DNA from: Candidatus Epulonipiscium sp.
GTDB taxonomy: Bacteria; Bacillota_A; Clostridia; Lachnospirales; Cellulosilyticaceae
Direction of reading: 5' to 3'
NCBI GenBank assembly: GCA_012841565.1
Contig: DUUM01000053.1
Location: 66,127 to 130,126, forward strand
Length of the DNA stretch: 64,000 bases
Part shown: in pieces, positions 3,001 to 62,995 of the stretch
Layout of the letters: the number at the start of each line of letters is the position of its first letter
Position numbering within the stretch: position 1 is the stretch's first letter
Notes under the pieces: generated by a model
The model's database searches: none
What the model was told of the DNA's origin: nothing
The model's input: the letters and a program-made list of their open reading frames with translations, nothing else
Made by a program: the position numbers and the translations under genes

Positions 3001-5067
3001 ATGGCAGATAAATTAGTTATTGTGGAGTCGGCAGCCAAAGTAAATACAATTAAAAAATTCTTAGGTCGCGGTTATAAAGTAGAGGCCTCATTAGGACATG
3101 TTAGGGACTTACCTAAAAGCCAACTGGGTGTTAATATAGAGGAAGATTTTGAGCCCAAATACATTACGATTAGGGGCAAAGGAGAGTTGCTTGCAAAGCT
3201 ACGCAAGCAAGCTAAAACAGCTTCCAAAATATATTTAGCAACTGACCCTGACCGGGAAGGTGAGGCTATATCTTGGCATTTATACCATTCGCTAAAACTA
3301 GAAGGGAAAAATGTTAGTAGAATTTCGTTTAATGAAATTACAGAAACGGCTGTTAAAGACGCCATTAAAAATGCAAGAGAGATTGATATGGATCTTGTAG
3401 ATGCTCAACAGGCCCGTAGGATGTTAGACCGTTTAGTAGGGTACCAAATAAGCCCTATTTTATGGAAGAAAGTTCGAAAAGGACTTAGTGCAGGTCGGGT
3501 TCAATCTGTAACACTTAGATTAATTTGTGATCGGGAACAGTTAATTCGAGATTTTATAGAAGAAGAATACTGGTCAATAACAGTCGATATGAAAAGTGGT
3601 TCTAAGGCGAAACCATTTGAAGCTAAATTTTACGGGAATACGGATGGGAAACTAGAGATTGTAAATGAAACTCAAGCAAATGATATAGTAGATTCCCTAG
3701 GGAAAAATCAGTACGAAGTAACACAGGTAAAGATTGGTAGTCGTACTAAAAATACTTTGTTACCATTTACAACAAGTACGCTTCAGCAAGAGGCATCTAA
3801 GCACCTTGGATTTACCACACTGAAAACAATGAAGATAGCACAGCAATTATATGAAGGTATTAAAATCGATAAAAAAGAAGTTGGGCTAATTACATATCTT
3901 AGAACTGACTCAACGCGTATATCTGACCAAGCACAACAAGATCTCAAGGCGTATATAGGGGATAATTTCGGAGAAGAATATTTCGATAAAAGCAAAATTG
4001 TGAAGAAGTCTAAAAAGTCTAATGTGCAAGATGCTCATGAGGCAATAAGGCCGACAGGTGTTGAGATAAAACCTAACGATATTAAATCATTCTTAAGTAG
4101 GGACCAAAACAGGTTATACAAGCTTATATGGGAACGTTTTATTGCTAGTGGCATGGCGCCAGCCAAATATGAAACCTATTCAATTAAAATTAAAAATGGT
4201 GAGTATGTTTTTAATGCAAATAGCTCTATTGTATTGTTTGATGGTTTTTTAGCAGTTTATAATATGGATAAAGAAAACACTAAACAAGCTCATACGGTAC
4301 AAGTTGAGGAAGGGCAGGTTTTAGATTCTACAAATTTGAAAGCCAATCAGCATTTTACGCAACCACCGGCAAGATATACGGAAGCATCTCTTGTAAAAAC
4401 ATTAGAAGAGAATGGGGTAGGTAGGCCTAGTACATATGCGCCTACAATTTCAACACTTTTTACTAGAGGATATGTGGTTCGAGAAAAAAGAATATTATAC
4501 CCAACTGAACTAGGAGAAATTATAAATGATATTATGGTTGGATATTTTAAAGATATAGTGGACGTAGAATTCACAGCTAACTTAGAACAGGTATTGGATG
4601 GGGTAGAAACAGGAAAGTCTAATTGGAAGCAAGTCATAAGAGATTTTTATCCACCATTTAGTGAAACTTTAAAAGTTGCTGAGGAAGAAATTGGTGAGAT
4701 TAACATAGTTGAAGAAACAGATATTCTATGTGAAAAATGTAACGCAAATATGGTTGTAAAATATGGACGCTTTGGAAAGTTTATAGCGTGCCCTAATTTT
4801 CCGGAATGCAGGAATACAAAACCTTTTTATGAAGAAACTGGAATTTTATGCACAAAGTGTGGTGGCAAAGTATTTTTAAAGAAAACCAAAAAAGGCCGAA
4901 ATTATTATGGTTGTGAAAACAACCCTGAATGTGAGTTTATGTCATGGGATAAGCCTACCGGGGAAAAGTGCCCGCTGTGTCAAGAAACTTTAGTGGAAAA
5001 AGGTGGGAAGACTAAAAAGATTGTATGTAACAATAAACAATGTAATTTTGGCAAAGAGAAAAAATAG
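3001..5067 (+). CDS. topA: DNA topoisomerase I
   Basis: Type IA topoisomerase (688 aa) that relaxes negative supercoils by passing DNA through a transient single-strand break. Residues 1-115 form the Toprim domain with Glu9 (VIVESAAK) and the metal-binding DPDRE at 82-86. The catalytic tyrosine is Tyr299 in ITYLRTDSTRIS. The C-terminus holds three four-cysteine zinc ribbons (starting CEKCNANMVVKYGRFGKF, CTKCGGKVF and CPLCQETLVEKGG) that bind single-stranded DNA; their number is normal for Firmicutes. The start is supported by GGAGGGATACG before ATG. It lies 45 bp after dprA and probably shares its transcript; a strong terminator follows. Confidence 0.97.
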   Translation: MADKLVIVESAAKVNTIKKFLGRGYKVEASLGHVRDLPKSQLGVNIEEDFEPKYITIRGKGELLAKLRKQAKTASKIYLATDPDREGEAISWHLYHSLKLEGKNVSRISFNEITETAVKDAIKNAREIDMDLVDAQQARRMLDRLVGYQISPILWKKVRKGLSAGRVQSVTLRLICDREQLIRDFIEEEYWSITVDMKSGSKAKPFEAKFYGNTDGKLEIVNETQANDIVDSLGKNQYEVTQVKIGSRTKNTLLPFTTSTLQQEASKHLGFTTLKTMKIAQQLYEGIKIDKKEVGLITYLRTDSTRISDQAQQDLKAYIGDNFGEEYFDKSKIVKKSKKSNVQDAHEAIRPTGVEIKPNDIKSFLSRDQNRLYKLIWERFIASGMAPAKYETYSIKIKNGEYVFNANSSIVLFDGFLAVYNMDKENTKQAHTVQVEEGQVLDSTNLKANQHFTQPPARYTEASLVKTLEENGVGRPSTYAPTISTLFTRGYVVREKRILYPTELGEIINDIMVGYFKDIVDVEFTANLEQVLDGVETGKSNWKQVIRDFYPPFSETLKVAEEEIGEINIVEETDILCEKCNANMVVKYGRFGKFIACPNFPECRNTKPFYEETGILCTKCGGKVFLKKTKKGRNYYGCENNPECEFMSWDKPTGEKCPLCQETLVEKGGKTKKIVCNNKQCNFGKEKK

Positions 5068-5139
5068 TTGTCGCTTTATGTTGAATCCTCTTTTCAAATG
5101 TGGTATTATATTGTTATTATATAATATAGTCTAAAATCT

Positions 5140-5169
5140 GCAAAGTTAGAAAACTAACTTTGCTTTTTT
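5140..5169 (+). terminator. Intrinsic terminator after topA
   Basis: GCAAAGTTAG and CTAACTTTGC form a perfect 10-bp stem with an AAAA loop, followed by a run of T residues (5163-5169). It ends the dprA-topA unit. Confidence 0.88.
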
Positions 5170-5259
5170 GTGTAAAACAATCAATAGATGTATAGTATAT
5201 GAATATTTTGAACAAACTATATAGATAATATTATAAGCAAACAATTAGGAGGAAAAGTA

Positions 5260-6009
5260 ATGTCTATAGATTTATTGCAGAAAATGAGAAAGTTTAATCG
5301 GTTACTACAACGGGTAGGTTCTGATCGAGTGGTATTTACAGATATTTGTAAAGTACTGAGTGATGTTACGGCATCGAATATTGTGGTGATTGGCAATAAT
5401 GCAAAAGTATTAGGTATTTTTAATATTGATGAAGAAGCTTTTGTCTCTGAAGAAAAATATATTGATACAATGATTAATGATCAATTGCTTTCAATTATGG
5501 AAGTTAAAGAAAATATGCCTATGAGTAGTATATTTACAGAAGATCCCCTTAGCAAAAGATATAATGCTTGTATCATACCGGTTGTTGCAGGGGGGCAAAG
5601 AGTAGGTACTCTCTTAATTTATAAAAAAGAAGGTAATTACGTAACAGATGATATTATTTTAGGTGAATATGGTGCTACGATTATAGCGGTAGAGGTACTT
5701 CGCTCTGTAAGAACTGAAATAGAAGATGAAGAAAGAAAGACCGCTATTGTTAAGTCTGCTATAGGAACATTATCATATTCGGAACTCGAAGCAATTTTCC
5801 ATATCTTTGATAAGTTAGATGGAACAGAAGGTCTACTAATTGCAAGTAAGATTGCAGATAAAGTAGGGATTACGAGATCAGTTATTGTCAATGCTCTTAG
5901 GAAATTTGAAAGTGCAGGCGTAATTGAATCAAGATCCTTGGGCATGAAAGGGACGTATATTAAAGTTCTTAATAATGTTCTTATTGAAGAATTAAATAAA
6001 CTAAGATAA
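5260..6009 (+). CDS. codY: GTP- and branched-chain-amino-acid-sensing global repressor CodY
   Basis: CodY (249 aa) represses stationary-phase, nutrient-acquisition and often motility genes when GTP and isoleucine/valine/leucine are abundant. The N-terminal GAF-type ligand domain covers about residues 1-155. The C-terminal winged helix-turn-helix contains ASKIADKVGITRSVIVNALR and ends SAGVIESRSLGMKGTYIKVL, nearly the family consensus. The start follows AGGAGGAAAAGTA. It stands between topA and the flagellar cluster, separated from both by hairpins. Adjacency to the fla/che genes fits CodY's known influence on motility in Bacillus, but I did not find a convincing CodY box before flgB. Confidence 0.97.
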   Translation: MSIDLLQKMRKFNRLLQRVGSDRVVFTDICKVLSDVTASNIVVIGNNAKVLGIFNIDEEAFVSEEKYIDTMINDQLLSIMEVKENMPMSSIFTEDPLSKRYNACIIPVVAGGQRVGTLLIYKKEGNYVTDDIILGEYGATIIAVEVLRSVRTEIEDEERKTAIVKSAIGTLSYSELEAIFHIFDKLDGTEGLLIASKIADKVGITRSVIVNALRKFESAGVIESRSLGMKGTYIKVLNNVLIEELNKLR

Positions 6010-6016
6010 CTACTCT

Positions 6017-6047
6017 AAGCTGTCATTTAATAATTCAATGACAGCTT
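6017..6047 (+). terminator. Hairpin after codY (weak terminator candidate)
   Basis: AAGCTGTCAT and ATGACAGCTT form a 10-bp perfect stem around an 11-nt loop, 8 nt after the codY stop. No T-run follows, so termination here is uncertain. Confidence 0.45.
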
Positions 6048-6071
6048 AAATTGTCTAATCGTCTAAAACTA

Positions 6072-6220
6072 CTTTAAATGACAGTCAGCTATCGAATAAG
6101 AGGATTTTTTGTATAAGACTAAGATGTTGTATACATAGCTCTATATAAAACAAATGATATACTTGATTTATTTGGAATTGGGGTATATAATGTGGTATAT
6201 TCAAAATTAACTGTATAAAA
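6072..6220 (+). repeat. Direct repeat copy A: riboswitch 3'-half remnant plus promoter
   Basis: Imperfect copy of 6324-6476. Shared blocks are TTTAAATGrCAGyCAGCTAyCGAAT, GAGGAT followed by Ts, GTATAyATAGyTCTATATAA, ACTTGATT/GCTTGATG and ACwGTATAAAA (lower-case letters mark differences). Copy A contains the 3' part (P3 side) of a c-di-GMP-I aptamer but no 5' part, so it cannot fold as a riboswitch. It carries the promoter that lies upstream of the intact riboswitch. Confidence 0.8.
6163..6191 (+). promoter_or_regulatory. Sigma-A-type promoter P1 upstream of the riboswitch
   Basis: TTGATT (6163-6168), 17-bp spacer, perfect TATAAT (6186-6191). A start near 6198 would place the whole c-di-GMP riboswitch in the leader, so P1 transcripts should be riboswitch controlled. 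Confidence 0.75.
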
Positions 6221-6260
6221 AATCGGATTATGATAGATAGCCTAAACTGTTTCAATATAG

Positions 6261-6366
6261 CAAAATATCTTTTTAACGATAATAGCAAACTTGACGAAAG
6301 GTAAGGACGCAAAGCTAAAGGGCCTTTTAAATGGCAGCCAGCTACCGAATGAGGATATTTTTTTAT
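6261..6366 (+). ncRNA. c-di-GMP-I (GEMM-I) riboswitch controlling the flagellar cluster
   Basis: The conserved GEMM-I parts appear in order: GCAAAC (6285-6290), the P2 hairpin with a GAAA tetraloop (6296-6299), GGACGCAAAG (6305-6314), GGGCC (6320-6324) and the P3 side ending GCTACCGAAT (6341-6350). A closing stem pairs AAAATATCT (6262-6270) with GGATATTTT downstream, running directly into a T-rich stretch (to 6363). The closing helix could therefore act as the terminator. In Clostridioides difficile a type I c-di-GMP riboswitch in the same position, before flgB, switches the operon off when c-di-GMP is high. The same logic is inferred here; the ON/OFF sense is not proven by sequence alone. 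Confidence 0.9.
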
Positions 6367-6476
6367 GCAAAAATAAAGAAATATGTATATAGTTCTATAT
6401 AATATAACCTGTATATGCTTGATGTTTTTGGTACGGGGGGGTTATAATAGAATATATTGTAGAAAAACAGTATAAA
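6324..6476 (+). repeat. Direct repeat copy B: riboswitch 3' half plus downstream promoter
   Basis: Partner of 6072-6220. Its first about 27 bp are the 3' end of the intact riboswitch; the rest is leader with a second promoter. The 104-bp segment between the copies holds the riboswitch 5' half, which exists only once. Confidence 0.8.
6418..6447 (+). promoter_or_regulatory. Promoter P2 downstream of the riboswitch
   Basis: TTGATG (6418-6423), 18-bp spacer containing a run of seven G, perfect TATAAT (6442-6447). It is the repeat counterpart of P1 but lies after the riboswitch, so transcripts from it would escape c-di-GMP control. flgB starts about 85 bp downstream. Confidence 0.65.
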
Positions 6477-6534
6477 AGAAGATTTTATGCTATAATAAAC
6501 TATACCTAAAAATTATTTAGCAAAGGAGAAATAG

Positions 6535-59762: not shown

Positions 59763-59794
59763 TGTTGTTCTTTTGAAGAAAAGCATATACAAGC

Positions 59795-59822
59795 ACAATA
59801 AAAACGCCAAATTCATACAGTA
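59795..59822 (+). promoter_or_regulatory. Candidate sigma-K-type promoter of dpaAB
   Basis: CATACAGTA (59814-59822) matches the -10 pattern CATAnnnTA of the mother-cell factor sigma-K exactly. An AC dinucleotide in GCACA (59795-59796) lies 17 bp upstream as expected for the short -35. The dpaA start is 42 bp downstream. Bacillus spoVF and Clostridioides dpaAB are sigma-K dependent; use here is inferred. Confidence 0.6.
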
Positions 59823-59863: not shown

Positions 59864-60283
59864 ATGAAGTTCGAAAAGATATCTTTTTCCGTTATCGGAG
59901 GGGATACAAGGCAAGTCAAATTGTGTAATCATTTAATACAACATGATTATCCAGTTAGTATGTTTGGATTTTCAAATATACAGGTGAATTCATCAGTAAA
60001 ACAATGTAAAAGTCTAGAAGAAGCTATAAATGATTCAGATATTATTATAGGTCCTATTCCATGTTCGCAAAATGACAAGGATTTATTTACCATGTATTAT
60101 GATAAAAAGATTAAAGTAGAGGATGTATTGAAAAGAATGAATAAACATCAGATATTTATGGCTGGACGGTTAACAGAAAAAATACAAAAAAATTTAACTG
60201 AGTATGATATAACCTATATTGATCTTTTAGAAAGAGATGATATGGCCATCCGTAATGCTATCCCTACAACATTTCTGTTTTGA
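59864..60283 (+). CDS. dpaA: Dipicolinate synthase subunit A, 5' part (gene interrupted)
   Basis: N-terminal half of DpaA/SpoVFA, the oxidoreductase subunit making dipicolinic acid for spores. Start ATG 59864 follows GGAGGTGAAGCGC; GTG 59855 is within that site. SFSVIGGDTRQVKLCNHLIQ and DLLERDDMAIRNAIPT match the family. The native sequence stops after codon 135 (NAIPT); the next four residues, TFLF, come from the inserted element and end at TGA 60281-60283. The conserved motif continues (AEGALQYA) only at 61931 onward, in frame after a 14-bp duplicated core. Alone, this piece lacks the NADP-binding domain and should be inactive. With the 3' part it gives 294 aa, close to the 297 aa of Bacillus DpaA. 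Confidence 0.93.
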   Translation: MKFEKISFSVIGGDTRQVKLCNHLIQHDYPVSMFGFSNIQVNSSVKQCKSLEEAINDSDIIIGPIPCSQNDKDLFTMYYDKKIKVEDVLKRMNKHQIFMAGRLTEKIQKNLTEYDITYIDLLERDDMAIRNAIPTTFLF

Positions 60284-61228
60284 ATTTTTTCTTAAAATTC
60301 TTTGTACCTCTACCCACTTTGAGCCCGGTATAATACCCTTATGTTTTCCTATGGCAATAATCCACTGATCAACACTTTTAGGTTTTCCGGATTTATTATC
60401 TTGATCAGTTCTATTATAGGCAGTTGTGCCATAGTCACCATTATAATCAGTAGGGGTGCCACACACCTTAGCCTCCAGAGCAGTGAAATAATCATAGATA
60501 CTAGCATCAGCATAAGCATAAACTGGATTAATTAATACATCTCTGATGGTAGCAGCTGAAAAATTACAATTGTTTTTAGTTTTAATACCTTGTTCCAAGA
60601 AATATGATTCGACTTTCCTTAATTTTTTGAAGCTGATAAAGCTATTAAAGATCATTATGATTAAATTGATTTCTTCCGGGACAGAAACTAGTTTATACAT
60701 TTTTTTTTTATTTAAATTGTTATCATAATACTCTATGGGCTCACTTTTAAATCCAGTGGGACATGTGCCACCTAACCACCTTCCAGAGCATGCTAGGGCA
60801 TACATATTATCTTTAATACGCTCTGCAATGGTTTCTCTTTCTAATTGGGCGAAGACCATAGCAATATTGAGCATGGCTCTGCCTATAGGACTGGAGGTAT
60901 CAAATTGTTCTTTAACAGAGACAAATTCAACATGGTATTTTTGTAGCACTTCATATGTATTTGAAAATTGAGCAATATTACGGGATATGCGATCTAGTCT
61001 ATAGCAAATAAGAATATTAAATTTTTTTTCCTTTGCATCTGCTATCATTTGTGTAAACATAGGTCTTTTAGTATTACCGCCAGAAAATCCTTCATCTGTA
61101 TAAATAAAAATATCGTCGTTACTGGGAAAAAATTCTTTTGCATAATCTTTACAAAGTTGTATTTGGTTAAATGTTGAATCTCCTTTTTCAGTGAGCTTAC
61201 TTTTACGTGAGTAAATGGCTATTTTCAT
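60227..61228 (-). CDS. Large serine recombinase (SpoIVCA-like), C-terminally truncated
   Basis: Protein of 333 aa. The resolvase catalytic domain (1-150) keeps the nucleophile Ser10 (AIYSRKS), YRLDRISRN and SSPIGRAMLNIAMVFAQLER with ETIAERIKDN. A recombinase DNA-binding domain follows (GRWLGGTCPTGFKS, then TIRDVLINPVYAYADASIYD, up to PGSKWVEVQRILRKNSK). Full-length relatives of about 500 aa continue with a zinc ribbon and coiled coil, both missing here. The frame instead runs through the left core, and its last eight residues (TDGHIISF) are encoded by dpaA DNA outside the element. After excision and circularisation the tail would become LYPYTVFISLLN. ATG 61226-61228 follows AAGGAATGAGATAA. 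Likely the excisase for this element. Confidence 0.93.
   Translation of the reverse strand: MKIAIYSRKSKLTEKGDSTFNQIQLCKDYAKEFFPSNDDIFIYTDEGFSGGNTKRPMFTQMIADAKEKKFNILICYRLDRISRNIAQFSNTYEVLQKYHVEFVSVKEQFDTSSPIGRAMLNIAMVFAQLERETIAERIKDNMYALACSGRWLGGTCPTGFKSEPIEYYDNNLNKKKMYKLVSVPEEINLIIMIFNSFISFKKLRKVESYFLEQGIKTKNNCNFSAATIRDVLINPVYAYADASIYDYFTALEAKVCGTPTDYNGDYGTTAYNRTDQDNKSGKPKSVDQWIIAIGKHKGIIPGSKWVEVQRILRKNSKQKCCRDSITDGHIISF
60254..60267 (+). repeat. Left attachment core (attL) in dpaA
   Basis: AATGCTATCCCTAC, identical to 61917-61930. It encodes NAIPT in dpaA. The first AA is the predicted crossover dinucleotide, because it is the exact centre of the inverted repeat seen at the right end. Confidence 0.88.
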
Positions 61229-61296
61229 TTATCTCATTCCTTATTGTTAGCTTTATAACAAGATATGCTATAAAGAGTAAGTTTAGTAATGATAAT

Positions 61297-61320
61297 AAGG
61301 GCAGGAATATTCCTGCCCTT
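61297..61320 (-). terminator. Palindrome after the coat genes
   Basis: A perfect 24-nt inverted repeat (12-bp arms, AAGGGCAGGAAT) 6 bp after the coat gene stop. It separates coat genes from the recombinase; no long T-run follows, so termination strength is uncertain. Confidence 0.65.
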
Positions 61321-61326
61321 ATGGTA

Positions 61327-61575
61327 TTAACCCATAGATAACTCAGATTTTGTTGAATTAATTTCGTTCTGAGGAGCCTCGCAAGCAGGCTTGTAGTAGC
61401 CTCTTTGTTTAGCTGCTTGGTAAATCTTATATTGACGTTGCTCATCATTATCTCTCATTTGTTGGAAGGTTTGTCTAAGCTGAGGATTATCTGTTTGAGC
61501 AATGGTAGTAGCATATCCAGATAAACTGCCGTTAATCATATTTAAATAGTCATTCATTATATCCTTTTCTGTCAT
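61327..61575 (-). CDS. CotF-like spore coat protein
   Basis: Small protein (82 aa) of the spore coat F family of Clostridia: EKDIMNDYLNMINGSLSGYA, then NPQLRQTFQQMRDNDEQRQY, KIYQAAKQRGYYKP. ATG follows GGAGGCCATTTAC. It is the second gene of a two-gene unit on the minus strand inside the dpaA element. Mother-cell expression is expected for coat proteins, the same compartment in which dpaA must be repaired. Confidence 0.85.
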   Translation of the reverse strand: MTEKDIMNDYLNMINGSLSGYATTIAQTDNPQLRQTFQQMRDNDEQRQYKIYQAAKQRGYYKPACEAPQNEINSTKSELSMG

Positions 61576-61587
61576 GTAAATGGCCTC

Positions 61588-61773
61588 CTAGCCTAAAAAA
61601 GTCATTAGTTTTTGTTTGCTGTTTTTTGCATCTTGGGCATCATCTTGTAACATTTGCTTTAATTGTGGATCAGTACATTGTTGAGACATTGACTCTAGTT
61701 TGTTTGCCACAGTCCCATGTGCACCAACCAAGTGTCTGATGTGTTGCAATTCTAACTGATTTAAATTTGCCAT
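61588..61773 (-). CDS. Small CotF-type spore coat protein
   Basis: Protein of 61 aa, helical: LNQLELQHIRHLVGAHGTVA, NKLESMSQQCTDPQLKQML, QDDAQDAKNSKQ. It resembles the first helices of CotF-family four-helix proteins that are encoded next to a longer CotF partner. ATG follows AAGGAGTGATTTT; 12 bp separate it from the next coat gene. Between its start and the right core (61774-61916) there is no further gene; the stretch should hold the promoter. Confidence 0.8.
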   Translation of the reverse strand: MANLNQLELQHIRHLVGAHGTVANKLESMSQQCTDPQLKQMLQDDAQDAKNSKQKLMTFLG

Positions 61774-61904
61774 AAAATCACTCCTTAATTTTAAGATTTC
61801 TTACTCAAAGGTATTATTTCACAAGGCAACTTTTTTTATTCTCTTTTTTGAAAAAAGGTTTAAAAATGAAACTTAAATTAATTTAATAAGGATATGAAAA
61901 CAGT

Positions 61905-61930
61905 GTAGGGATAGAGAATGCTATCCCTAC
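61905..61930. repeat. Inverted repeat around the right attachment site
   Basis: GTAGGGATAG (61905-61914) and CTATCCCTAC (61921-61930) are a perfect 10-bp inverted repeat with a 6-nt centre AGAATG. The left site lacks this symmetry. On excision the circle would carry this dyad as attP, with AA (61917-61918) at the exact centre. Confidence 0.85.
61917..61930 (+). repeat. Right attachment core (attR) in dpaA
   Basis: AATGCTATCCCTAC, identical to 60254-60267 and in the same reading phase of dpaA (NAIPT). Flanking bases differ on both sides, so the identical stretch is exactly 14 bp. Confidence 0.9.
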
Positions 61931-62411
61931 TGCTGAGGGAGCATTACAGTATGCCATGGTTAATAGTCAGATCACGTTACACGGAAGCAAATGCATTGTA
62001 TTAGGCTTTGGAAGATGTGGTAAGGTATTAGCTCATATGCTAAAGGGAATTGGCGCAGATTTAAGTGTAGAGGCGCGCTCCCAAATAGATTTAGCTTACA
62101 TTCAAAGTTATGGTTATAACCCTGTGCCACTTAAGGATCTAGCTGAATATATTGGTCAATATGATTTTATATTTAATACCATACCATCATTAGTCTTAGA
62201 TGAAAAAAAGTTAATGAATATGAAAAAAGATTGCTTAATTATTGAACTGGCATCAAAGCCAGGGGGGATAGATGTTGAAGCTGCAAAAAGGGTTGGTATA
62301 AAGGTGGTAGATGGTCAAAGTTTACCAGGCAAAGTCGCACCAGAAACAGCTGCAAAAATTATATTCGATACAATACTAAATGCATACAGTGATATGGGGG
62401 TTATGTTATGA
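61917..62411 (+). CDS. dpaA: Dipicolinate synthase subunit A, 3' part (gene interrupted)
   Basis: C-terminal 164 residues of DpaA, given from the core onward. It reads NAIPTAEGALQYAMVNSQIT, then the Rossmann NADP site CIVLGFGRCGKVLAHML, FNTIPSLVLDEKKL and LIIELASKPGGIDVEAAKRV, PGKVAPETAAKII. The frame runs on upstream into the element. The first ATGs (61951, 61956) have no suitably spaced ribosome-binding site, so separate translation is unlikely. It joins the 5' part without loss or frame change after excision. The stop overlaps dpaB by four bases. Confidence 0.93.
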   Translation, partial: NAIPTAEGALQYAMVNSQITLHGSKCIVLGFGRCGKVLAHMLKGIGADLSVEARSQIDLAYIQSYGYNPVPLKDLAEYIGQYDFIFNTIPSLVLDEKKLMNMKKDCLIIELASKPGGIDVEAAKRVGIKVVDGQSLPGKVAPETAAKIIFDTILNAYSDMGVML

Positions 62412-62995
62412 ACTTAAAAGGCCTCAGGTTAGGCGTAGCACTTTGTGGGTCCTATTGTACCCATAATGTGGTATTTGAACAAATAGAAAAATTAGTAGGG
62501 TTAGGCGTAGAGGTTTTCCCAATTATGTCTGAGAAGACATATATAACAGACACAAGATTTGGTAAAGCAGAAGATTTAATCATAAAGATAGAAACGCTTA
62601 CGGGTAGAAAAGTAATTCATACAATTGTAGATGTTGAGCCTATGGCCCCAAATAGTGTAATAGATATGTTGTTGATTGCACCTTGTACAGGTAATACCGC
62701 TGCAAAACTGGCCAATGCCATTACAGATACATCTGTGACAATGGCGGCTAAAGGAATGTTTAGAAATCATAAAAAAGTCATTATTGCCCTAGCTACTAAC
62801 GATGGGCTAGGTTTAAATTTGAAAAATATTGCAGCTCTTAAAAATTCAAGGGATGTGTATTTTGTACCCATTGGTCAAGATAATTATTTGAAAAAGCCAA
62901 ATTCATTAGTATCCCATATGGAATTAATCCCAGAAACGATTGAGAAAGCATTAAATGACGAGCAGTTACAGCCTGTTTTAAAGTCGTATAAATAA
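62408..62995 (+). CDS. dpaB: Dipicolinate synthase subunit B
   Basis: DpaB/SpoVFB (195 aa, normal), flavoprotein-like subunit. Motifs RLGVALCGSYCTHNVVFEQI, GVEVFPIMSEKTYITDTRFG, MLLIAPCTGNTAAKLANAI, TDTSVTMAAKGMFRNHKKVI. It is intact, unlike dpaA. Start overlaps the dpaA stop (ATGA), so DpaB synthesis probably depends on translation of the dpaA 3' part and thus on excision. Confidence 0.95.
   Translation: MNLKGLRLGVALCGSYCTHNVVFEQIEKLVGLGVEVFPIMSEKTYITDTRFGKAEDLIIKIETLTGRKVIHTIVDVEPMAPNSVIDMLLIAPCTGNTAAKLANAITDTSVTMAAKGMFRNHKKVIIALATNDGLGLNLKNIAALKNSRDVYFVPIGQDNYLKKPNSLVSHMELIPETIEKALNDEQLQPVLKSYK

What the first reader, a model, noticed from the sequence alone, without database searches (positions are those of the whole stretch)
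59864..62411. Dipicolinate synthase gene dpaA split by a skin-like excisable element
Two dpaA halves flank a 1,663-bp segment with a serine recombinase. A 14-bp direct repeat lies in the same codon phase at both ends, and joining restores a 294-residue DpaA with the conserved NAIPTAEG motif unbroken. Established cases of sporulation-specific DNA rearrangement (skin in sigK, intervening sequences in spoVFB, gerE and spsM) share this plan, but I do not recall one in dpaA of a Clostridium-type host. If real, DPA synthesis is gated by DNA excision in the mother cell.
Basis: partly seen in the sequence, partly recalled or inferred. Interest (0 to 1): 0.95.

Follow-up and report, generated by a model that had tools for sequence, protein, structure and literature searches.

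The report
Mini-element splits spore gene dpaA
A bacterium whose nearest match is an uncultured Lachnospirales genome has its gene for the spore chemical dipicolinic acid cut in two by a 1.66-kb DNA piece with a shortened recombinase, which is predicted to remove itself during sporulation; 21 other public protein clusters hold the gene broken at the same place, so the split is likely an old working switch and not a dead gene.

Summary
dpaA (dipicolinate synthase A) is split by 1,663 bp between two in-phase copies of AATGCTATCCCTAC; the joined flanks read a 294-residue DpaA, the length of the intact gene in the closest relative found (79% identity, no gaps). It is not one broken gene: 22 of 22 truncated DpaA clusters, the window's included, break at the same residues; by equal contig length 14 share a contig with a homologous recombinase and 9 with a C-half. 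The recombinase belongs to a clade of 16 that ends right after the recombinase domain: zinc ribbon and coiled coil, which hold back excision in relatives, are missing, and the outer attP arms lack the symmetry seen in a prophage. Prophages with 49-57% identical, full-length recombinases sit in the same codons of three other genomes. Best reading: a domesticated prophage remnant, skin-like, likely excised in the mother cell, perhaps without a directionality factor (an untested 81-aa ORF in a skr-like position is a candidate). No excision, timing or expression was measured; tests for a precise natural loss are only suggestive (AU p 0.07-0.13). New variant of a known kind; I saw no paper naming dpaA/spoVFA as an interrupted gene.

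The parts
59793..59822 (+). sigma-K-like promoter of dpaA: GCACA, 15 nt, TCATACAGTA
   Evidence: 11 of 12 consensus positions; 0.7% of 300 two-base-block shuffles as good. The same boxes stand upstream of the intact dpaA in L001, one base closer together, outside my scan's spacing, so the L001 score is not significant
59864..60267 (+). dpaA 5' half, ending in NAIPT; the open frame runs into the element and stops at 60283
   Evidence: PF16924 E 8.2e-31; NF006162 positions 3-136
60254..60267 (+). attL core, first copy of the 14-bp repeat; predicted crossover at its leading AA
60227..61228 (-). serine recombinase, 333 aa, catalytic plus recombinase domain, no zinc ribbon or coiled coil; its stop codon lies in dpaA sequence
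   Evidence: PF00239 E 5.8e-35, PF07508 E 6.9e-16, no PF13408; alignment A1; model matches the LI integrase recombinase domain over 148-317
61203..61448 (-). 81-aa ORF that overlaps the first codons of the recombinase gene and the end of the Coat_F gene; possible directionality factor by position only, or chance
   Evidence: no Pfam or PHROGs match
61295..61322 (.). perfect 14+14 bp hairpin between the Coat_F gene and the recombinase gene
61327..61575 (-). Coat_F-domain protein, 82 aa
   Evidence: PF07875 E 3.6e-21; 88% identical gene outside dpaA in the MAG G001
61588..61773 (-). small DUF1657/Coat_F-like protein, 61 aa
   Evidence: PF07870 E 1.7e-4, below the curated cut-off; a similar ORF neighbours the Coat_F gene in G001
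61812..61841 (-). sigma-G-like promoter of the two small genes (GAATA, 18 nt, AATAATA)
   Evidence: 10 of 11, 2.1% of 1000 block shuffles; same site in L001, 2.7%
61905..61930 (+). attR inner palindrome GTAGGGATAG/CTATCCCTAC; its right part 61917-61930 is the second repeat copy
61917..62411 (+). dpaA 3' half (NAIPTAEG onward); no start codon until ATG 61956
   Evidence: NF006162 positions 132-287, E 5.3e-64
62408..62995 (+). dpaB, overlapping the end of dpaA
   Evidence: TIGR02852 above cut-off

Best explanation
dpaA is split at its NAIPT codons by a 1,663-bp element that encodes a serine recombinase without zinc-ribbon and coiled-coil domains and is predicted to cut itself out in the mother cell of a sporulating cell, which would rejoin a 294-codon dpaA in front of dpaB. 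Shown: the split, the in-phase repeats, the open frames of both halves in many clusters, the missing domains, and prophages with related full-length recombinases in the same codons. Inferred: a prophage integrated into dpaA, lost its phage genes and then the C-terminal domains of its recombinase; because the coiled coil is what blocks attL x attR synapsis in a studied large serine recombinase, the remaining protein likely acts as an intramolecular resolvase and may need no directionality factor. Control would then lie in when the recombinase gene is transcribed. The spore chromosome would keep the element; the mother cell, which dies, would lose it. Excision would also put dpaB back behind the dpaA promoter.
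For: In-phase 14-bp repeats and a restored 294-aa frame, 79% identical without gaps to an intact DpaA. 22 of 22 truncated DpaA clusters (one is the window's own) break at the same residues. By equal contig length, 14 of these 22 share a contig with one of the homologous recombinases, 9 with a C-half, 8 with both, the window counted each time; one such contig is only 3,119 bp. Proteins stay conserved: N-half identities 51-84%, recombinases 60-81% among the 14 pairs; window versus L001 dN/dS about 0.11 and 0.06 for the two halves, 0.14 for dpaB (dS near saturation). Short recombinases form one clade (16 rows, 99/100); two dpaA recombinases that keep the zinc ribbon lie just outside it. Ser10, Arg8 and other catalytic-domain positions are invariant in 22 aligned proteins (their role is recalled). 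In positions 14-25 the two attP arms agree at 10 of 12 in the prophage G019 but 5 of 12 in the window (random mean 4.1), as expected if no zinc ribbon reads them. LI integrase without its coiled coil acts as an unregulated resolvase within one molecule and does not integrate (PMC3783163, passages). One intact DpaA (MAG L001) falls among the split ones in trees of either half.
Against: No excision product, circle or expression was observed. LI integrase lacking the whole zinc-ribbon domain is deficient in DNA binding (PMC3783163), so the short protein must bind by other means or be weak. An 81-aa ORF at 61203-61448 overlaps the start of the recombinase gene by 26 bp, a place like that of skr, the 64-aa factor of the B. 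subtilis skin, which overlaps spoIVCA by 101 nt (PMC6957869); a directionality factor is therefore not excluded. No significant sigma-E or sigma-K site was found before the recombinase gene. The small genes' promoter looks forespore-type, not mother-cell. Recombinase and dpaA trees agree only partly: Mantel r 0.39, P 0.065 for 14 pairs; 0.21, P 0.12 for 12 short ones; 0.43, P 0.003 only after contig 2716 is dropped, so some transfer or mis-assembly is likely. The nested intact copy is not proven: AU p 0.068 (N), 0.067 (C), 0.127 (both halves, 19 rows). Contig sharing is inferred from equal lengths, and a database of predicted proteins favours open copies.
Confidence: 0.78

Rival explanations
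1. The two halves are translated separately and DpaA works as a two-piece protein; the element is a permanent spacer.
For: Both halves stay open and conserved in many clusters, and the cut lies between the DpaA_N domain and the NAD-binding domain. A few C-halves in other clusters have an upstream start (six listed proteins of 168-191 aa).
Against: In the window the 3' half has no start codon before ATG 61956 and in-frame stops at 61884-61889, so it would lose NAIPTAEG; N131, P134, T135, E137 and G138 of that motif are invariant in 21 intact DpaA. N-half tails after NAIPT differ in length (1 to 50 and more residues) and sequence, though some close rows share them. A conserved recombinase and core repeat would have no purpose.
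Confidence: 0.08
2. A decayed mobile element that has killed dpaA; the host makes DPA otherwise or not at all.
For: The recombinase has lost a domain needed for DNA binding in a related enzyme, and the element has no recognisable phage genes.
Against: The same split persists across N-halves only 51-84% identical, dN/dS is low in both halves, and the truncated recombinase is itself conserved in 16 sequences. Caveat: predicted-protein databases favour open copies.
Confidence: 0.07
3. An ordinary active phage or island with no developmental link: excision is sporadic and dpaA is only a convenient integration site.
For: dpaA is a repeated target: prophages in G019, G023 and G008, and an unrelated recombinase (24% over 98 aa) in a 2.9-kb element in G233. 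Partly discordant trees hint at some mobility.
Against: The window element has no phage, replication or transfer gene that I could recognise, and the recombinase lacks the part that integration needs in LI integrase.
Confidence: 0.07

Closest known systems
vfbin element in spoVFB (dpaB) of Bacillus weihenstephanensis
   Same: Intervening element in a dipicolinate synthase gene with a serine recombinase (named in PMC4191935, PMC6957869, PMC10747680 and PMC5595907; passages or sections seen).
   Different: Other subunit, Bacilli host; vfbin is described as carrying phage-related genes. Its own paper (Abe 2013) was not held.
skin elements in sigK (B. subtilis, C. difficile)
   Same: Sporulation gene split by a prophage-like element that encodes a serine recombinase; mother-cell gene.
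   Different: 48 kb in B. subtilis (PMC3416734). Both need a directionality factor: Skr (PMC6957869) and CD1234 (PMC5025042); the C. difficile recombinase has zinc ribbon and coiled coil. Here 1.66 kb, no zinc ribbon, factor unknown.
gin in gerE (B. cereus) and yin in yabG (C. botulinum)
   Same: Same plan with serine recombinases; gin also has no phage genes.
   Different: gin is 28.6 kb and uses GirC plus directionality factor GirX (PMC5595907); yin is a putatively functional prophage with a PF13408 recombinase (PMC10747680).
Delta-CC LI integrase (laboratory mutant)
   Same: Lacks the coiled coil and recombines attL x attR in one molecule without a directionality factor (PMC3783163).
   Different: Keeps the zinc ribbon and its DNA binding; made in the laboratory. 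Here the whole zinc-ribbon part is absent in nature.

Membership tests
sporulation gene-intervening (skin-like) elements | Sporulation gene split in frame by short direct repeats | tested here: met
sporulation gene-intervening (skin-like) elements | Site-specific serine recombinase encoded within the element next to an att site | tested here: met
sporulation gene-intervening (skin-like) elements | Target expressed in the mother cell | tested here: inconclusive
   sigma-K-like promoter of dpaA, 11 of 12; expression not measured
sporulation gene-intervening (skin-like) elements | Precise excision during sporulation | not testable with these tools
   needs cells or reads; a precise empty site in a relative (L001) is compatible
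sporulation gene-intervening (skin-like) elements | Separate recombination directionality factor (known for SPbeta, gin, both skins) | tested here: inconclusive
   two Coat_F-like genes, whose counterparts stand outside dpaA in a genome without a close recombinase, and an 81-aa ORF without family match
large serine recombinases | Resolvase (PF00239) and recombinase (PF07508) domains | tested here: met
large serine recombinases | Zinc-ribbon domain (PF13408) with coiled coil | tested here: not met
   absent in the window protein and in 16 of 16 of the short set; present in P0017 and P0019 and in G008, G023 and G233

The most novel reading that the evidence does not exclude
A natural family of one-way developmental DNA switches in which a prophage integrase was stripped of its directionality machinery: removal of the zinc ribbon and coiled coil turned it into an excision-only resolvase, its attP lost the outer arms, and one 1.66-kb cassette with coat-protein genes now gates dipicolinic acid synthesis without any directionality factor.
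Probability: 0.38. Interest if true: 0.88.

Novelty: new variant of a known kind. Interest (0 to 1): 0.8.

Why it matters
If true, it adds subunit A of dipicolinate synthase to the genes that spore formers keep split, in a lineage outside the Bacillus and Clostridium cases, and shows a graded series from whole prophages to a 1.66-kb remnant at one codon. The conserved loss of the very domain that blocks excision would be a natural answer to how an integrase can be made excision-prone, testable with two short DNA sites and one protein and of use for recombinase engineering. It also warns that automatic annotation may report such genomes as lacking an intact dpaA.

Tried and rejected
The host genome is not held, so uniqueness of dpaA and read mapping could not be tested. 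No DNA of another mini-element could be obtained: the one genome-contig scan gave one intact relative; searches of 24 genomes of the MAG's family, 392 of its order, 391 of its class and 8 of G060's family gave only longer recombinases (open frames 455-648 aa, 33-57% identical) or nothing at the thresholds set; viral contigs gave 14 integrase loci (46-52%) and what looks by eye like a second record of the G019 prophage end. Comparison of mini-elements therefore rests on proteins and on contig lengths. Promoter scans for sigma E and K before the recombinase and small genes gave nothing above shuffles. That a Coat_F-like protein is the directionality factor was put aside because G001 keeps such a pair near dpaA without any close recombinase (best 27%), but it is not excluded. 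Strict vertical inheritance was considered and not claimed. A claim that this is the smallest such element is not made: PMC6957869 mentions small ones whose sizes I did not see. Besides the 16 short recombinases, P0018 (261 aa) and P0102 (306 aa) also lack PF13408; I left them out as possible fragments. The structure model has mean pLDDT 74.9 and is used only to locate the end of the recombinase domain. Among named phages the best match of the recombinase is Terrisporobacter phage TPELB_ph1, 47% (1,019 records matched).
Full report
What is there. dpaA starts at 59864, reads to the codons N-A-I-P-T at 60254-60267, and then enters foreign DNA and a stop at 60283. The rest of the gene resumes at the same codons at 61917 and ends at 62411, overlapping dpaB. 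The repeat AATGCTATCCCTAC stands at both points in the same codon phase, 1,663 bp apart, and nowhere else exactly in 64 kb. The NCBIfam DpaA model is covered at positions 3-136 by the first and 132-287 by the second half. Joining the flanks in a script gives 294 residues with no internal stop, 79% identical and without gaps to the intact 294-residue DpaA of the MAG in L001.

The element. It holds a 333-aa serine recombinase on the minus strand, an 82-aa Coat_F protein and a 61-aa DUF1657/Coat_F-like protein. No phage gene was recognised. The other ORFs of 40 aa or more overlap these genes; one of 81 aa (61203-61448, minus) overlaps the recombinase start by 26 bp and has no Pfam or PHROGs match. 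In the B. subtilis skin the factor gene skr overlaps spoIVCA in a similar way (PMC6957869, passages), so this ORF is a candidate by position only. The recombinase frame runs through the left repeat and stops inside dpaA; in the excised circle it would end differently, at 337 aa. The pair of small genes also exists in the MAG G001, 88% identical for the 82-aa protein, but there it starts about 2.3 kb beyond the end of dpaB, outside dpaA; 1 of 7 other genomes searched had a 51% match. Upstream of the pair a sigma-G-like site is shared by both genomes (10 of 11; 2.1% and 2.7% of shuffles as good). dpaA itself has a sigma-K-like site (11 of 12; 0.7% of shuffles). Sigma consensus strings came from the table in PMC3416734.

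It is a family. A search with the truncated N-half, which by the tool's length rule admits proteins of 0.55 to 1.75 times its length and so not intact DpaA, found 22 clusters at E up to 1e-5 among 26 candidates, the window's own included; all 22 depart from DpaA at the same point (18 read NAIPT, 2 NATPT, 1 NAMAT, 1 NAIPA). A recombinase search listed 120 of 7,778 matches; the top 16 are short (317-334 aa; the other 15 are 68-76% identical to the window's) and lack PF13408, the 17th (529 aa) and 19th (546 aa) keep it. Matching the listed longest-contig lengths, 14 of 22 N-halves share a contig with one of these recombinases (12 short, 2 long), and 9 share one with a C-half from a third search (120 of 1,617 listed); 8 contigs have all three. 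One contig of 3,119 bp holds N-half, recombinase and C-half. Eight N-halves have no recombinase partner in the list, among them contigs of 23,379, 7,054 and 3,998 bp. Four short recombinases have no N-half partner; their contigs are 2,401 bp or less.

Evolution. In the N-half tree the 21 split rows (P0140 dropped, its end did not fit my cut pattern) and one intact row, P0143 (the DpaA cluster of L001), form one group, and P0143 sits inside a 12-row set with 11 split rows (96/90). Trees of the C-half and of both halves together also put it among split rows, and in none of 200 bootstrap trees are the split rows alone one side of a branch, but AU tests do not reject a split-only clade (p 0.068, 0.067, 0.127). 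Intact rows were chosen by me from the listing: 14, fewer in the later trees; P0185 and three partial proteins (P0240, P0253, P0259) were left out of the C-half set. So a precise natural loss is likely but not shown. Short recombinases form one clade (99/100), the two zinc-ribbon-bearing dpaA recombinases lie just outside it (98/95 for all 18 together), and the prophage recombinase of G019 (P0022) further out: one loss of the C-terminal domains after insertion is the simplest history. Recombinase and N-half distances agree weakly (r 0.39, P 0.065, 14 pairs; 0.21, P 0.12, 12 short; 0.43, P 0.003 without contig 2716), so I do not claim strictly vertical descent.

Prophages in the same codons. 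In G023 they are 23.5 kb apart, with terminase, portal and baseplate genes between. In G008 the N-half meets a 556-aa recombinase; no C-half was found and the contig ends 16 kb further on. These recombinases are 57, 49 and 55% identical to the window's. In a sample of 392 genomes of the order, 175 had a DpaA match; at least G019, G023, G008 and G233 are split at this site, and in G090 and G165 both halves end at contig ends within NAIPT; the match list was cut, so this is a lower bound. G233 carries a 2.9-kb element with an unrelated, zinc-ribbon-bearing recombinase (24% over 98 aa) and a short-chain dehydrogenase gene, so the site has been hit by more than one recombinase family.

Known or new. 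Papers seen: PMC5595907 (outline, introduction, discussion), PMC10747680 (outline, introduction, section 3.1), passages of PMC3416734, PMC5025042, PMC5553647, PMC4191935, PMC6957869 and PMC3783163. They name sigK, spoVFB, spoVR, spsM, gerE and yabG as interrupted genes. Searches with dpaA, spoVFA, spoVFB and dipicolinate synthase (9 of 9, 20 of 72, 20 of 131, 25 of 266 and 20 of 142 papers listed) gave none in which I saw dpaA/spoVFA named as the interrupted gene; only an open-access library was searched, Abe 2013 was not held, and most listed papers were not opened, among them PMC4773242, which mentions spoVFA. I file it as a new variant: same plan, new target gene, small size, and a recombinase without the domain that sets direction.

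Noticed in passing
L082 (G233:C14:29001-39000), 3570-6512: An unrelated 536-aa serine recombinase with a short-chain dehydrogenase gene forms a 2.9-kb element at the same dpaA codons, so this motif is hit by at least two recombinase families.
   Followed up: partly
L083/L085 (G090) and L084/L086 (G165): Both dpaA halves end at contig ends within NAIPT in two genomes; in G165 the two contig ends share 14 bases of the site. Assembly may have broken at a mixed integrated/excised site.
   Followed up: partly
L001:11326-11821: The Coat_F gene pair that lies inside the window element stands outside dpaA, beyond genes that look by eye like panBCD, in the intact relative; capture by the element or later relocation is open.
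   Followed up: partly
L056-L057 (G019:C6), L058-L059 (G023:C80), L060 (G008:C113): Prophages in dpaA with full-length large serine recombinases (47 and 23.5 kb, the third cut by a contig end); the G019 one also holds a tyrosine integrase.
   Followed up: partly
window 60227-60267: The recombinase stop codon is supplied by antisense dpaA sequence, so the protein's last residues change between integrated and circular form (333 or 337 aa).
   Followed up: yes
PMC3416734, section 12 (passage): The Epulopiscium genome paper could not recover spoVFA next to spoVFB; a split or missing dpaA in that relative would be worth a look.
   Followed up: no
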